NCBI GenBank assembly: GCA_945946665.1
Contig: CAMEWO010000014.1
Span: 1 to 52,827, forward strand
Direction of reading: 5' to 3'
DNA from: an uncultured Eubacterium sp.
GTDB taxonomy: Bacteria > Bacillota > Clostridia > Lachnospirales > Lachnospiraceae
DNA length: 52,827 nucleotides
Shown: positions 43,087 through 48,924 of the stretch, in pieces
Layout of the letters: every line of letters begins with the position of its first letter
Numbering within the stretch: position 1 is the first letter of the stretch
Translations under genes and position numbers: made by a program
The notes under the pieces: model-generated
The model's input: only the letters and a program-made list of their open reading frames with translations
What the model was told of the DNA's origin: nothing
The model's database searches: none

Positions 43087-43322
43087 AAAAACTACAGTAT
43101 AACTCTATCATCCCATGAAAGGATAATATCATATACCTCTCCCTTCTTTGTAAAAATATACTACACGCAATTACATAACATGCCACAATTAAGCACTATA
43201 AATATGTATAACTTTGTTTCTTTCATATGTAAAGCACTTATTTCGACAATATTGTACAACCTTGCCTATACTTAGTCAAATATTACCTTTTCCCAAATAT
43301 CTATAATTCTTAACAGGTATAC

Positions 43323-43796
43323 TAATTCAGTAGTAGAAATTCTTTAAGGTTACTTAACCCTCTGTAAAATCAAGATTATTGTCTTATCTACGATAGTAGA
43401 AATTCTTTAAGGTTACTTAACCTATAAGAAATTCAGAAGAACACCAGAAATCTACAATAGTAGAAATTCTTTAAGGTTACTTAACTTGCTGCGAGCATGG
43501 TCTGTGTCTGAATCTACAATAGTAGAAATTCTTTAAGGTTACTTAACGCAAAGCAGTTAGGAAATGAGATTAAATCTACAATAGTAGAAATTCTTTAAGG
43601 TTACTTGACAATGTAGATAATGTAGATAATTCTGTAGATCTACAATAGTAGAAATTCTTTAAGGTTACTTAACTATGCCATCTATTTCGGTAGATTGGAT
43701 CTACGATAGTAGAAATTCTTTAAGGTTACTTAACAAATTGTTAAGAGAAATTATGGAACTATCTACGATAGTAGAAATTCTTTAAGGTTACTTAAC
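43323..43796 (-). CRISPR. type V-A CRISPR array, 8 repeats and 7 spacers
   Basis: 36-bp repeats start on the plus strand at 43323, 43386, 43450, 43512, 43574, 43638, 43699 and 43761; spacers are 27, 28, 26, 26, 28, 25 and 26 bp. On the minus strand the repeat starts GTTAAGTAAC and ends in the Cas12a handle AATTTCTACTATTGTAGAT. The array is thus in the cas orientation with the leader at the cas2 side. The repeat at 43323 is degenerate at its 3' end and cannot form the handle stem, marking the trailer. Loop variants (ATC instead of ATT) occur in the repeats at 43386, 43699 and 43761; 43574 has one change near its 5' end. Confidence 0.97.
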
Positions 43797-43922
43797 TCCT
43801 AGCTCGTCAATTTATACAAAAAGCTTGTAAATAGCCTTGAAAATAATCATATTTTTTGTAACTTTTGCACATAGTATGTTAAGTAACTTCCTAAAAATCA
43901 TATATTAAAGCCCAGGTTTGCA
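43797..43922 (-). promoter_or_regulatory. array leader
   Basis: An AT-rich 126-bp stretch between cas2 and the first repeat. It has a TATAAA-like -10 close to the array but no clear -35. It contains GTTAAGTAAC (43878-43887), the first ten bases of the repeat in inverted orientation. Confidence 0.6.
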
Positions 43923-44198
43923 TTATGTTATGATCAAAAAATCCTTTTCATCATTCTTTGCATACCCAAACCTTAACACTTCACAACTTGATGATAGTTT
44001 GAATATAATTACACTATCCTCCTGCCCAAAACTCTTCTCATATTTATTCTTTAAATCATTAACAATATTATCAACTATTCTTGGGCTGTTGTCAATTTCA
44101 AAAACAGAATACTGCAATCTATGTCCAAACCGTGATAAATACTTAGAAAATCTTGTTCTTAACTTATCATTAGAAATATCATAACTTACTATTATCAA
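43923..44198 (-). CDS. cas2: CRISPR-associated endoribonuclease-like Cas2
   Basis: A 91-aa protein with the ferredoxin-like Cas2 fold. IIVSYDISNDKLRTRFSKYL contains the conserved Asp 7; LQYSVFEI is the typical second strand. With Cas1 it forms the spacer integration complex. The start is TTG at 44198, with AGGAGA 6 nt upstream; an ATG at 44203 is followed at once by a stop. It is full length while its partners cas4 and cas1 are broken, so it probably lacks function in acquisition. Confidence 0.88.
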   Translation of the reverse strand: MIIVSYDISNDKLRTRFSKYLSRFGHRLQYSVFEIDNSPRIVDNIVNDLKNKYEKSFGQEDSVIIFKLSSSCEVLRFGYAKNDEKDFLIIT

Positions 44199-44209
44199 TT
44201 CATGTCTCC

Positions 44210-44484
44210 TTAGTGAAGTAAAAAAGTTGGTATATCCTCAACACTCTTCATTTTCATAAAATATCTGTAGTATCGTTGCACATATAAGAAAATATCATCT
44301 TTATATTCAAGAATTGCACTCATTAAAAAAGGTAATCTAATGGTGCATCCAGAGCTTGTGCCATTTCATCCAGCATGGATATTCCATCTTTTATATTGTC
44401 ATTCTTTTTTCTGATATTTCTTAAAGTCTGAGCCTGATTCCTTATCTTGTTTTGTTCTATTTTCCTACCAATATCAGTTTCTGC
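44210..44484 (-). pseudogene. cas1: cas1 remnant (tentative)
   Basis: The segment from 44484 to 44323 encodes GRKIEQNKIRNQAQTLRNIR and a helical continuation ending DAPLDYLF, which resembles the central helix region of Cas1 (AKIxNQ-type). A following 37-aa ORF (44210-44323, TAATG overlap, MSAILEYKDDIFLYVQRYYR) sits where a Cas1 C-terminus should be. The catalytic Glu/His regions are missing. A full cas1 is about 1 kb, so most has been deleted. Assignment rests on weak similarity and position between cas4 and cas2. Confidence 0.5.
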
Positions 44485-44804
44485 ATACTCATATATACAC
44501 TTTTTGCATTTTAGTGCATTGGTCTGATGATAATTTTCCAAATTAAACACTCTCATTTCATTTACAAGATTTTCAAATTTAGAATTCATTTCCTGATTCT
44601 GCTCTGGCAAATCAATTATGTATTTCTTGTTATCATCAATGCTCCTGATTTCCATATGCCTAACTCATGTGCTTTTGTTCCATCAATCTGATACGAAGAC
44701 TGATACATAAGAACGTCCTCACTTCCATATAACTTATGAAAGTATATGGAAGCAGGGCAAAAAATAAAATCATTCAAATTGGAAATTATAATAATATCAT
44801 CCAT
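44484..44804 (-). pseudogene. cas4: internally deleted, frameshifted cas4
   Basis: The ATG at 44804 directly follows the cas12a stop and encodes a Cas4 N-terminus, IIIISNLNDFIFCPASIYFH with the first cluster Cys, up to GTKAHE (about residue 49). The frame then breaks. In the next frame come RSIDDNKKYIIDLPEQ and LKCKKCIYE, which match the Cas4 C-terminus with its Cys motif. About 100 residues containing the RecB-type nuclease core are missing, and the C-terminal part runs on into the cas1-like segment. This is a deletion fusion and should be inactive. Confidence 0.75.
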
Positions 44805-47800
44805 CTACATATACCTTTTATTTTGGATAAAATCAAACCAATCTTCATTCCTTATCTTTAACACATCTCTATCAAACTTTTCATCAGTCCAGTTTTCTTT
44901 AATCTTCATCACCTCATACAAACCTTTAAGAGCAATACAATATGCACCATTAGCATCTGCATTGCAAGGCAGTGACCCTTCTTTTCCCTTATAATTATCA
45001 GAATCGTAAAAAGCATTATCCTTGTTCAAAACAGGGGAAATCAGCCTGTCATATTCATCATTTAATTTTTCTTCTTCAATCTCACTAAGGCTGTTTCTCA
45101 TCTGAACAGTATATTTGAATATTGACACAATTTCAGACAGCAAATGTTCATTTTCATCCATGGATTCAATATCAATCTTCAGATTATGACCATCATTATA
45201 TGCGATTTTTTTGTTATTAAATGCATCAGCTAATCGTTTTGTCAAGTTTATTTCCTCTGACTCACTTGTAAACCTTCCATTAGAAAATTTTCTATTCAAT
45301 CTGACTCCATTTGTGTACACATCCCACTTAGTTTTTGGCAATGTAACCTTATGCGTATCAAAATCATTATAATCAAATGAGAACTTGAACATCTGTCTCT
45401 CATCATCATATTTTATTTCATCAAATTTCATTAAGAATTCTTTTTTATTTGTAATGCTATTAAAATTAAAAGCATTAATAAATCCTGTTTCCGGGTCAAT
45501 CTTTGACGTATATGCTGCTGGAACATAGAAAATAAAACCACACTGTCTTCCAACATCCTTGAGACTTTCAGGAATATACGTCAATTGATATCCTCTGAGA
45601 AGCCCTCCATTCTCGTCAACAGGAAAATCTTTTGAAACAAGATAATTCAATTTACTTATAAGCATTGTTTCAAACTTTTGGTACACCTGTCTTTCAACTT
45701 TAAATCTTCCCCTCTTAAATCCATAATTCAAATCTTCCATGGCAATAATAGCATTGTATTCTCTCATTAAATCTGTAATCTCATGTATTACTGATGAAAG
45801 ATATCCCTCTTTCAACTCCTTTATTCTACCTATTTCTTTCCAGTTCTTTCTGGCATAATCTCTTGTTTTTTCTCTATCCTTTAATTTCTCTTTATAATTA
45901 TATCCTTTCACAACATTAAACGATTTCTGCTTTATAATATTTCCATGAGAATCAATTACCGAAACATACAACAGATTTCTTTCACCTCTGTCAATTCCAA
46001 TGACATGGATATCTTCTTTCTCAGAAATATACTTTAATACCATATCATTAAGATTCTTTCTTGAATCTGCTTTAAAATTAATCGTAATAGGGAGATGTAT
46101 AAAGAACTTATCCACCGTATATCTGTAGTCCTTTATAATTTCTTTCTGAACATTCTTCGTTTCTATCTTTCCGGTATTAATTAATTTCTCTGCTTCAGGC
46201 GAGAGTTCTGTGCCATTATTGTAATGATTATATATACTAATATATATATCATCTGGAATAGGCATACGTATTTCTAAACCATTTTCATCTGTTTCAGTGA
46301 TTGTCTTATTAACAAGGCAAGAACCTTTTTCATGTATAACAGGACATTTAATACTTGATTTTCTAAAGAATAATTCAGCCTCACCATTAAGCTTTAATAC
46401 AATATCTTTCAGATTTTCTTCACTGAACAGATTCTTAAGATACATCGTGTGAAGATTAGCCTTTCCAGTGCTCTTTTCTGAAAAGTCCTTATTGTATATC
46501 TGGAAAAGATATATCTGACCATCTTCATCAAGCCTGTTTATATCTTCTTCACTGATATATGTCCAGCTGATTTTATATCCCTGTTTTTCAACCTCCCTGT
46601 AAAATTCACTTATATCGTTATAACTACTTGTATCAGAGAAAATAAAGCCAAAATTTTTCCATTCAGGGTGAATGTTTATACACGCCTTAAAATAATCTAT
46701 TAAATCTCTGCAAAACTTTATGTCAAAATTACTATTTGACTTAATATGTTTTCCTTCCTTATATCCTTCCAATAAATAATTTGATGGACTATATGTTTCA
46801 ACTCCTTTTTTAGAAGAGATAAAAACTTTGGGTAGCATTTTATTTGCTCCTGGCAAAAGATTGTATACCATTTTCTTATAATCAGTATTACTGCCGCAGT
46901 TTACATTCCCCGCTATTATCGTTTTATCAGGTTTATCCTTTGTATTAAATATTGCAAGATAATACTTGCCATCTCTTAATAACAGAATCGCATTATTATC
47001 AAATTCCTTACTCTGAGACCACCCATTAGCCAAGGTCGGACTCTTAAAATTAAGTTTTATCTTCTCTGTGCTGAAAGGTTTCTGTGTGACATAATTTCTC
47101 ACCTTATTATACAATGACACAATATCCTCTAATTCATCGTAGATATTATTAACTTCTGAATAAAAGTTCACATCACAATCTAAACTTTCTTCAACCATAA
47201 ATGTCTTTAACCAGTGAAAAATATTTAAGCACTTATCAAGAACACCTTTTATCTCGGTTGATTTCTTTTCATCTTCAATAAGATTAACACCAGAATTATA
47301 TTCTAAACAGCTAATAGGCTCTGATACAATATCAACTATGTCCGTTATATATTTTGAAGATTTAATTATTTTATTATCTTTATTGGATTCCTGTCCATAC
47401 TCACTTATTAAATCATCAATGTCTTCTAAACTCTTATATTTATCGTTATTTACAGCTTTTCTGACTTTTTCATCCTTCGCCTTTCCCTTTCCAGGTATAT
47501 TTTCCTTATAGAATTCTGTCAGACAATTCTTTATAACATCCCATTTACCTGATATACATATTGACAAGCTTTCATAGTATTTTCCGGATATGTATATTCT
47601 GCTTAAATCATATTCACCCACAGACTCACCAAGTAATTTTAATCTTGCAAATATATCTTTACTATTTACGTTAGATATAAATGCATTAACCGTTTTATAG
47701 ACTTCTTCATCATTCTCATACATTAAAGGTATTTCAAACGAAGATTCAGCTTTAGCCAGAATCTGTTTGTGGAGTTTCCGCATTCGGAACAGATTAATAT

Positions 47801-48629
47801 TACTCTTTGTCTGCTGACAGTATAAATTCATATGAGAATTAACAATACCACTCACTCTATTAAAATAATCTATACTCCCCTGTGTCAAAAACATCCCATA
47901 AAAATCAGGGCTATACATCTGTTCCAGTCTCCAGCTTGAAAATTCCTGCTTATTTTCCTCTTCAATTAATTCAATCTCCTGACTTGCATATTTCTTTATG
48001 TTTCTAAAACAACAAAGATTCTGCAAGAATATAGTGGCATTTTCATTAGCAACTCTAAAACAAATAGAAGAAGATATTTCATCATTAGAAAAAATATTCT
48101 TCCTATTGTTAAAATAATCTGTAAAGGATGTACTAAATCTATTAAAAAGATTTACTGTTTCCAACTTATCTTGCTTTTCCTGTTCACTATAATCAACATT
48201 ATTATTTATAAACTTTGGAAGCAAATCTGAAATTATCTCTGCACAAAATAGTTTCTTAAAATCTTTATCATCTGAAAGATATCCATATATCTGCTTTCTT
48301 ATTAAGCTTTGCTCATCCTCCAGTAACTTTTTATTATCCTTTGAAGAATCCTTCTGACATTTCTCCATTGCAACGAACAATTCATCCCATTTGATATCTC
48401 TTACGTTTGATAATTTACTTTCAATATATGCCCGATAATAATCATCCATTATTTCTTTTAATTCCTGACGTTTCTCTGCCCTTAACTCATCCTCTGTAAT
48501 AACGCCATTATCTTCTATATGGCGTCTGGTTGCAGCTGTTGGAACTAACTCGTTCCTGATTGTCTTTGATAACGAAGAAATCCCAATAAACTCTTCGTAT
48601 ACGTTGCTTTTCTTTTCACGTTCTTGCAT
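44805..48629 (-). CDS. cas12a: CRISPR-associated endonuclease Cas12a (Cpf1)
   Basis: A 1274-aa effector, full length for the family. It resembles the Eubacterium eligens enzyme throughout (for example LANGWSQSKEFDNNA, YLAIFNTKDKPDK, NLLPGANKMLPK). The RuvC triad is intact: Asp 880 in IGIDRGERNLLY, Glu 965 in AIIAMEDLNYGFKRGR, Asp 1225 in NADANGAYC. The Nuc-domain Arg 1178 (QMRNS) is present. It processes its own crRNA and cuts T-rich-PAM DNA. GGGAG precedes the ATG. It has its own promoter, separate from the mini-array upstream. Nothing suggests inactivation. Confidence 0.98.
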   Translation of the reverse strand: MQEREKKSNVYEEFIGISSLSKTIRNELVPTAATRRHIEDNGVITEDELRAEKRQELKEIMDDYYRAYIESKLSNVRDIKWDELFVAMEKCQKDSSKDNKKLLEDEQSLIRKQIYGYLSDDKDFKKLFCAEIISDLLPKFINNNVDYSEQEKQDKLETVNLFNRFSTSFTDYFNNRKNIFSNDEISSSICFRVANENATIFLQNLCCFRNIKKYASQEIELIEEENKQEFSSWRLEQMYSPDFYGMFLTQGSIDYFNRVSGIVNSHMNLYCQQTKSNINLFRMRKLHKQILAKAESSFEIPLMYENDEEVYKTVNAFISNVNSKDIFARLKLLGESVGEYDLSRIYISGKYYESLSICISGKWDVIKNCLTEFYKENIPGKGKAKDEKVRKAVNNDKYKSLEDIDDLISEYGQESNKDNKIIKSSKYITDIVDIVSEPISCLEYNSGVNLIEDEKKSTEIKGVLDKCLNIFHWLKTFMVEESLDCDVNFYSEVNNIYDELEDIVSLYNKVRNYVTQKPFSTEKIKLNFKSPTLANGWSQSKEFDNNAILLLRDGKYYLAIFNTKDKPDKTIIAGNVNCGSNTDYKKMVYNLLPGANKMLPKVFISSKKGVETYSPSNYLLEGYKEGKHIKSNSNFDIKFCRDLIDYFKACINIHPEWKNFGFIFSDTSSYNDISEFYREVEKQGYKISWTYISEEDINRLDEDGQIYLFQIYNKDFSEKSTGKANLHTMYLKNLFSEENLKDIVLKLNGEAELFFRKSSIKCPVIHEKGSCLVNKTITETDENGLEIRMPIPDDIYISIYNHYNNGTELSPEAEKLINTGKIETKNVQKEIIKDYRYTVDKFFIHLPITINFKADSRKNLNDMVLKYISEKEDIHVIGIDRGERNLLYVSVIDSHGNIIKQKSFNVVKGYNYKEKLKDREKTRDYARKNWKEIGRIKELKEGYLSSVIHEITDLMREYNAIIAMEDLNYGFKRGRFKVERQVYQKFETMLISKLNYLVSKDFPVDENGGLLRGYQLTYIPESLKDVGRQCGFIFYVPAAYTSKIDPETGFINAFNFNSITNKKEFLMKFDEIKYDDERQMFKFSFDYNDFDTHKVTLPKTKWDVYTNGVRLNRKFSNGRFTSESEEINLTKRLADAFNNKKIAYNDGHNLKIDIESMDENEHLLSEIVSIFKYTVQMRNSLSEIEEEKLNDEYDRLISPVLNKDNAFYDSDNYKGKEGSLPCNADANGAYCIALKGLYEVMKIKENWTDEKFDRDVLKIRNEDWFDFIQNKRYM

Positions 48630-48678: not shown

Positions 48679-48707
48679 ATTATATACCTGCAGATTATTT
48701 TTGTAAA
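48679..48707 (-). promoter_or_regulatory. cas12a promoter
   Basis: On the minus strand -35 TTTACA (48702-48707) and perfect -10 TATAAT (48679-48684) are 17 bp apart, giving a 5' leader of about 40 nt before cas12a. Confidence 0.85.
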
Positions 48708-48749
48708 TCTATTTTTATGAAGAATTGTTATGCTTTATTCTTCTATGAT

Positions 48750-48780
48750 AAAAAAATAACGCATAAATGCGTTATCTTTT
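48750..48780 (-). terminator. terminator between the mini-array and cas12a
   Basis: ATAACGCA-TTTA-TGCGTTAT followed by T7 on the minus strand, with A-rich sequence on the other side. It ends the mini-array transcript 16 nt after its last repeat and before the cas12a promoter. Confidence 0.9.
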
Positions 48781-48795
48781 AACAAAAATTCTTCA

Positions 48796-48894
48796 ATCTA
48801 CAATAGTAGAAATTCTTTAAGGTTACTTAACATAACCGATTTCATTTAGCCATTGGCGATCTACAATAGTAGAAATTCTTTAAGGTTACTTTTT
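48796..48894 (-). CRISPR. single-spacer mini-array upstream of cas12a
   Basis: Two repeats flank one 27-bp spacer (48832-48858). The repeat at 48796-48831 is identical to the main-array consensus. The repeat at 48859-48894 matches except for its last three plus-strand bases (AAC replaced by TTT), which is its 5' end in the transcript. Both keep the complete Cas12a handle. A consensus promoter abuts the outer repeat and a terminator follows the inner one, so the unit looks like a self-contained gene for one crRNA. No leader is present. Confidence 0.93.
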
Positions 48895-48895
48895 T

Positions 48896-48924
48896 ATTAT
48901 ATTTAATAACCAACTTTCCGTCAA
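48896..48924 (-). promoter_or_regulatory. promoter of the mini-array
   Basis: On the minus strand -35 TTGACG (48919-48924) and perfect -10 TATAAT (48896-48901) with a 17-bp spacer. Transcription should start near 48889, a few bases inside the first repeat and upstream of the Cas12a processing site. The adjoining gap to metI shows no gene. Confidence 0.88.

What the first reader, a model, noticed from the sequence alone, without database searches (positions are those of the whole stretch)
48750..48924. Promoter-abutting single-spacer crRNA gene upstream of cas12a
Directly visible: a consensus promoter (TTGACG, 17 bp, TATAAT), then a repeat whose first bases merge with the promoter, one 27-bp spacer, a second perfect repeat, and 16 nt later an intrinsic terminator. 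cas12a then has its own promoter. There is no leader, so new spacers could not be added here in the usual way. Known precedents are Cas-regulating RNAs (CreR) and scaRNA, which are crRNA-like RNAs guiding Cas effectors to host promoters. By inference this unit encodes one constitutive guide, perhaps to autoregulate cas12a or a host gene. A partial spacer match to the cas12a promoter was looked for by eye and not found, so the target is elsewhere.
Basis: partly seen in the sequence, partly recalled or inferred. Interest (0 to 1): 0.88.

Follow-up and report, generated by a model that had tools for sequence, protein, structure and literature searches.

The report
Cas12a self-repression guide RNA gene
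Just upstream of a Cas12a gene in a gut-type bacterium lies a small RNA gene whose short guide matches the DNA at the Cas12a gene's own promoter, so it probably lets Cas12a turn down its own production, and unlike the relatives examined it also carries one extra ordinary CRISPR memory unit.

Summary
The anatomy is real: promoter TTGACG-17-TATAAT, repeat R1, 27-bp spacer S1, repeat R2, 16 nt, terminator, then cas12a with its own promoter. A Cas12a crRNA has its handle 5' of its guide, so R2 also makes a guide, from the 16 nt before the terminator. It begins TGAAGAATT and matches the cas12a promoter region exactly for 9 nt beside a TTTA PAM (48714-48726). S1 has no TTTV-flanked match of 6 nt or more in the window. 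Ten V-A loci, this one included, have an isolated handle upstream of cas12a; 8 of 10 guides match their own upstream region for 8 or more nt beside TTTV, against 0 of 90 cross-pairings. In four Lachnospiraceae, four of the nine seed bases vary, yet each guide matches its own target 9 of 9. This is a CreR-type autorepressor, a kind reported for type V-A. New is an extra 63-bp repeat-spacer unit between the creR promoter and the creR repeat, seen in 1 of the 10 units and absent from the same-genus one. S1 looks like ordinary memory of unknown target. cas4 and cas1 are gutted, so the locus probably no longer adapts. Expression and repression are inferred, not shown.

The parts
48896..48924 (-). 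creR promoter, TTGACG-17-TATAAT
   Evidence: TTGACGG and TATAATAAAA shared with the same-genus unit of G001
48859..48894 (-). Repeat R1: 33 of 36 nt of the array repeat (first GTT reads AAA); handle of the S1 crRNA
48832..48858 (-). Spacer S1, 27 nt, immune-type; target not found
48796..48831 (-). Repeat R2, identical to the full 36-nt array repeat; handle of the CreR guide
48780..48795 (-). CreR guide, seed TGAAGAATT (48795-48787), runs into the terminator
48750..48779 (-). Intrinsic terminator, hairpin plus T run
   Evidence: homologous to the G001 terminator
48714..48726 (+). Predicted CreR target: PAM TTTA (48714-48717) and 9-nt seed match TGAAGAATT (48718-48726), six bases upstream of the cas12a -35 box
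   Evidence: the matching stretch covaries with the guide in three relatives
48679..48707 (-). cas12a promoter, TTTACA-17-TATAAT
44805..48629 (-). cas12a, 1274 aa; REC1, REC2, PI, RuvC and NUC domains
44219..44804 (-). Remnants of cas4 and cas1 (large parts missing)
   Evidence: the yardstick genes of L087 are Cas4 and Cas1
43923..44198 (-). cas2, full length
43312..43796 (-). Main CRISPR array: 8 repeats (the last degenerate), 7 spacers

Best explanation
48750-48924 is a creR-type gene: a small transcript from its own promoter that Cas12a uses as guide against the cas12a promoter. The RNA holds two handles. The second (R2) carries a short guide, TGAAGAATT plus a mismatched tail, that pairs for 9 nt with the DNA just upstream of the cas12a -35 box beside a TTTA PAM. 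Such short pairing should let Cas12a bind but not cut, so Cas12a would hinder RNA polymerase and lower its own production; array crRNAs that compete for Cas12a would lift the block. The first handle (R1) carries a normal 27-nt spacer, S1, probably ordinary immune memory, which entered between the creR promoter and the creR repeat. Shown: anatomy, seed match, the same architecture in relatives, guide-target covariation, and the 63-bp difference from the same-genus relative. Inferred: transcription, processing, binding, repression and the origin of S1.
For: The R2 guide matches 9 nt beside TTTA in the 480-nt region around the start of cas12a (450 upstream, 30 inside; the unit itself left out); 1 of 400 shuffles of its first 12 nt did as well, while S1 matches 2 nt and the seven array spacers 1-4 nt. 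It is the only TTTV site of 7 nt or more for this guide in the 52.8-kb window. Isolated handles in the same place and orientation in nine other V-A loci; 8 of all 10 guides match their own upstream region for 8 or more nt beside TTTV, against 0 of 90 cross-pairings. In four Lachnospiraceae each guide matches its own target 9 of 9 and the others' 5 to 8 of 9. Promoter, guide tail and terminator are homologous to the same-genus G001 unit. CreR in type V-A: section 9 of PMC12737573 and one passage of PMC13131331.
Against: No expression data. Genome-wide a TTTV + 9-nt match is not rare: 2 found, 1.5 to 3.0 expected, so the evidence is the position and the covariation, not uniqueness. The other site, inside a parE-like toxin gene, matches the guide for 11 nt, longer than the cas12a site. 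Two of the ten units (L046, L080) have only a 4- or 5-nt uninterrupted match. Of 95 upstream regions read, 85 show no such unit. In this locus the target lies upstream of the -35 box, not on it. The ten units were picked by their handle, but matches in the window and several others had been seen before the test was written.
Confidence: 0.85

Rival explanations
1. A small ordinary CRISPR array with one immune spacer; the match after R2 is chance.
For: R2 is a perfect full-length repeat and the 63-bp period fits the main array (61-64). TTTV + 9-nt matches are expected 1.5 to 3.0 times per genome.
Against: The trailer after R2 and the promoter are homologous to the single-handle unit of G001; seed covariation in four species; 8 of 10 against 0 of 90.
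Confidence: 0.08
2. S1 is the regulatory guide, aimed at another host gene.
For: Intact 10- and 11-nt S1 seeds exist at C5:79264 and C22:7074; TTTV + 10-nt seed with up to 2 mismatches gave 33 sites against 17 for the reversed control, an excess that I did not run down (six of the 33 were looked at).
Against: Neither intact seed stands beside TTTV (GTTC, TCTG); no genome site other than the spacer itself matches S1 within 3 mismatches.
Confidence: 0.03
3. A relic: the unit once repressed cas12a but is no longer used, in a system that is decaying.
For: cas4 and cas1 are gutted.
Against: cas12a is a full 1274-aa frame with its domains; the 9-nt match is exact; R2 is perfect.
Confidence: 0.04

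Closest known systems
CreR (Cas-regulating RNA) of type V-A systems
   Same: crRNA-like gene beside cas12a, short partial match to the cas12a promoter region beside a PAM, predicted autorepression (PMC12737573 section 9; PMC13131331 passage). The primary paper (Liu et al. 2023, Cell Host and Microbe) is recalled, not read.
   Different: One extra canonical repeat plus 27-nt spacer sits between promoter and CreR handle, so one transcript would give an immune-type crRNA and the CreR. The CreR handle lies about 80 nt after the -10 box and would need cutting by Cas12a, whereas in 6 of the 9 relatives a TATAAT lies 6-11 nt before AATTTCTAC (by eye).
CreA of CreTA / CrePA modules
   Same: crRNA-like guide with partial match to a nearby promoter (PMC12737573 passages).
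   Different: The best-placed target is the cas gene itself. No toxin gene was identified next to the unit; a second, 11-nt match lies in a parE-like gene on another contig.
scaRNA / long tracrRNA autoregulation of Cas9 (recalled)
   Same: Small RNA guides its Cas nuclease to promoters without cutting.
   Different: The effector is Cas12a, which needs no tracrRNA (recalled); the RNA here is a repeat-guide.

Membership tests
CreR, type V-A | Repeat-derived handle in a separate small unit at the cas locus | tested here: met
CreR, type V-A | Guide partly complementary to the cas promoter region, next to a PAM | tested here: met
   9 nt beside TTTA, six bases upstream of the -35 box
CreR, type V-A | Guide and promoter kept matched in evolution | tested here: met
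   four Lachnospiraceae, own target 9 of 9, others' 5-8 of 9
CreR, type V-A | Match too short for cutting | tested here: met
   9 nt then a mismatch; the length needed for cutting is recalled
CreR, type V-A | RNA is made and bound by Cas12a | not testable with these tools
   needs RNA data
CreR, type V-A | Represses cas12a; relieved by competing crRNAs or anti-CRISPRs | not testable with these tools
   needs reporter tests
CRISPR array (R1-S1-R2) | Two near-identical repeats with a spacer of array length | tested here: met
CRISPR array (R1-S1-R2) | Spacer matches a mobile element | tested here: inconclusive
   no convincing match
scaRNA | Works with Cas9 | tested here: not met
   the effector here is Cas12a

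The most novel reading that the evidence does not exclude
The creR gene served as an integration site: a spacer was added between its promoter and its repeat, making a single transcript that yields an immune crRNA and the self-repressor in fixed proportion. The CreR can then be released only by Cas12a cutting, so repression becomes tied to Cas12a activity and to the S1 crRNA that competes with it. A further, weaker thought: the same guide also has an 11-nt TTTG-flanked match inside a parE-like toxin gene elsewhere in the genome, which would make it a distant CreA-like antitoxin; chance alone gives 0.14 to 0.25 such sites.
Probability: 0.35. Interest if true: 0.62.

Novelty: new variant of a known kind. 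Interest (0 to 1): 0.5.

Why it matters
It puts a Lachnospiraceae Cas12a under predicted RNA-guided self-repression, gives a natural series of guide-target pairs that changed together, and shows a case where a regulatory guide gene and an immune repeat-spacer unit share one transcript. That makes it testable whether creR genes can take up spacers and how a built-in competitor changes the feedback. It also warns readers of small Cas12a arrays that the trailer after the last repeat can be a working guide.

Tried and rejected
S1 as regulatory guide: rejected. S1 against viruses: exact 20-mer, TTTV + 16-mer and 19-mer in viral contigs, 0 hits each; blastn in phages, only a 20-nt, 95% match to two records of Leptospira phage LE3 at E 4, taken as chance; up to 3 mismatches in 397 family and 22 genus genomes, only the window itself. 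Two of seven array spacers tried in viral contigs as 20-mers, 0 hits; five not tried.

Rows dropped before the 10-unit test: of 15 loci with a hairpin in the looser scan, L047 (an array at its contig end), L105 (opposite orientation), and L077, L015 and L019 (TTTAC stems not like a repeat; L015 and L019 gave best matches of 1 nt, L077 was not tested). L051 has a handle 1,030 nt upstream and was left out, as were handles more than 1,500 nt upstream in L037, L049 and L069. A wider look in the order, class and phylum gave six new upstream regions (L120, L121, L122, L127, L131, L132), none with a hairpin, so the 8 of 10 has no independent replicate. Only the best 80 of 315 relatives were held.

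cas4/cas1/cas2 yardsticks were taken from L026, L087, L045 and L054; only L087 and L045 gave matches, L026 and L054 none.

A look-up of the same-genus genome by a recalled accession failed. Searches for a V-A CreR carrying an extra spacer in print: whose listings showed none; most subscription papers are not in that library.

Full report
Observation. R2 is identical to the 36-nt repeat of the main array at 43312-43796; R1 differs only in its first three bases. With up to 2 mismatches the handle occurs only in these two places of the genome.

The guide that was missed. Cas12a crRNAs carry the handle 5' of the guide (recalled knowledge of the family). R1 therefore makes S1, and R2 makes a guide from the 16 nt before the terminator. 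This guide begins TGAAGAATT. The same nine bases stand beside a TTTA at 48714-48726, six bases upstream of the cas12a -35 box. In a 480-nt region (450 upstream of the start codon, 30 inside) this is the best TTTV-anchored match; 1 of 400 shuffles of the guide's first 12 bases did as well. S1 scores 2 nt there and the seven array spacers 1 to 4 nt. In the whole window the R2 guide has one TTTV site of 7 nt or more, this one, and S1 has none of 6 nt or more.

Genome-wide the match is not unique. TTTV-TGAAGAATT occurs twice in 2.45 Mb, and a Markov estimate from the window's composition expects 1.5 to 3.0. The other site, C11:71021, matches the guide for 11 nt beside TTTG and lies inside a 100-aa frame of the ParE toxin family, behind a 96-aa frame that may be its antitoxin (judged by eye). 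For 11 nt chance expects 0.14 to 0.25 sites, so I take it as chance but not as excluded. The case for the cas12a site therefore rests on its position and on the relatives.

Relatives. Cas12a was sought in the genus (2 of 22 genomes), the family (9 of 397), the order (7 of 392), the class (2 of 371) and the phylum (4 of 378); the sets overlap, each count includes the window's own genome, and G337 and G1097 are weak hits with stops inside. In genome contigs the best 80 of 315 relatives were kept. Among 95 upstream regions read (at least two duplicates), ten including the window have an isolated handle of the repeat type in the right orientation, 108-219 nt upstream of the match start: window (R2), G001 (same genus), G062, L026 (Lachnospiraceae bacterium GAM79), L017, L045 and L046 (Eggerthellaceae and Coriobacteriia MAGs), L078 (Paludibacteraceae MAG), L080 and L081 (Campylobacteraceae MAGs). 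Longest TTTV-anchored matches of each guide to its own upstream region, in that order: 9, 9, 9, 9, 15, 8, 4, 11, 5, 9 nt. So 8 of 10 reach 8 nt; 0 of 90 cross-pairings do (largest 7). The two misses, L046 and L080, have interrupted matches beside TTTA. The ten are not all independent: I grouped window, G001, G062 and L026, and the pairs L045/L046 and L080/L081; the 74 cross-pairings between groups also gave at most 7. Many of the matches had been seen before the test was written.

Covariation. In the four Lachnospiraceae the seeds are TGAAGAATT (window), TAAAGTGAT (G001), TAAAGTTAT (G062) and TAAAGCTGT (L026). Each matches its own target 9 of 9 and the others' targets 5 to 8 of 9. The variable bases (positions 2, 6, 7, 8) have changed on both sides together, which drift alone would hardly do. 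At position 10 guide and target differ in all four, so the match stays short.

What is different here. The window's promoter (TTGACGG...TATAATAAAA), the guide tail and the terminator (TTTGTTAAAAG-TAACGCAT...GCGTTATTTTTTTA) align with the single-handle unit of G001; the window holds one extra repeat plus spacer, 63 bp, between the promoter and the creR repeat. None of the other nine units shows a second handle in the stretch scanned (one search prints all ten). The period of 63 bp fits the main array (61-64). This is what one spacer-addition event would leave, but exchange with the main array would leave much the same, and the first three bases of R1 (AAA, not GTT) fit neither perfectly. R2 has a full-length repeat whereas the relatives keep little more than the handle half, which also speaks for exchange with array sequence. 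In 6 of the 9 relatives a TATAAT lies 6-11 nt before AATTTCTAC (by eye), so that the transcript may start as a nearly ready handle; here the CreR handle lies about 80 nt downstream of the -10 box and would need cutting by Cas12a.

State of the system. cas12a is a full frame with REC1, REC2, PI, RuvC and NUC domains and scores 1357 bits against the Cas12a family model (cut-off 300); its best-scoring solved relative is 8qwd (molecule ReChb), with Cas12a/Cpf1 entries following. Against L087, whose genes are Cas4 and Cas1 of the type V models, cas4 of the window matches residues 1-47 and 119-179 of 185 and cas1 residues 102-151 and 285-319 of 322; cas2 is whole, 58% to that of L045. [quoted passage not shown] Other Cas1 genes of the genome were not searched for.

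Comparison with what is known. CreR in type V-A is described in section 9 of PMC12737573 and a passage of PMC13131331: a crRNA-like RNA that with Cas12a represses the cas promoter; the first adds relief by competing crRNAs or anti-CRISPRs. The primary paper is recalled only. The window fits every CreR feature that I could test by sequence. I file it as a CreR-type gene, new variant, with expression and repression untested.

Two genomes that the tool calls same family have contigs of the same lengths and match positions as named Lachnospiraceae records (G210/L040, G023/L087), which puts the window in Lachnospiraceae. The G001 contig length (2,144,190) is the one I recall for Lachnospira (Eubacterium) eligens ATCC 27750, which would make the genus Lachnospira; could not confirm it.

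Noticed in passing
44219-44804: cas4 and cas1 reduced to remnants while cas2 and cas12a stay whole: a V-A locus that has probably lost adaptation.
   Followed up: partly
L118 1501-1515 (G000 contig C11, from 71021): The CreR guide also matches 11 nt beside TTTG inside a ParE-family toxin gene of a likely toxin-antitoxin pair; 0.14-0.25 such sites expected by chance.
   Followed up: partly
L017, about 190 to 100 nt upstream of cas12a: An isolated handle whose guide matches its own cas12a upstream region for 15 nt beside TTTA, the longest of the ten.
   Followed up: partly
L012 (G001): A second, broken cas12a piece (57 residues, 65% identical, one stop) downstream of the whole cas12a in the same-genus genome.
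   Followed up: no
L047 1-160: A Campylobacter MAG contig with CRISPR repeats ending directly before cas12a.
   Followed up: no
43878-43887: Inverted copy of the first 10 bases of the repeat (GTTACTTAAC on the minus strand) between cas2 and the main array, seen by eye.
   Followed up: no
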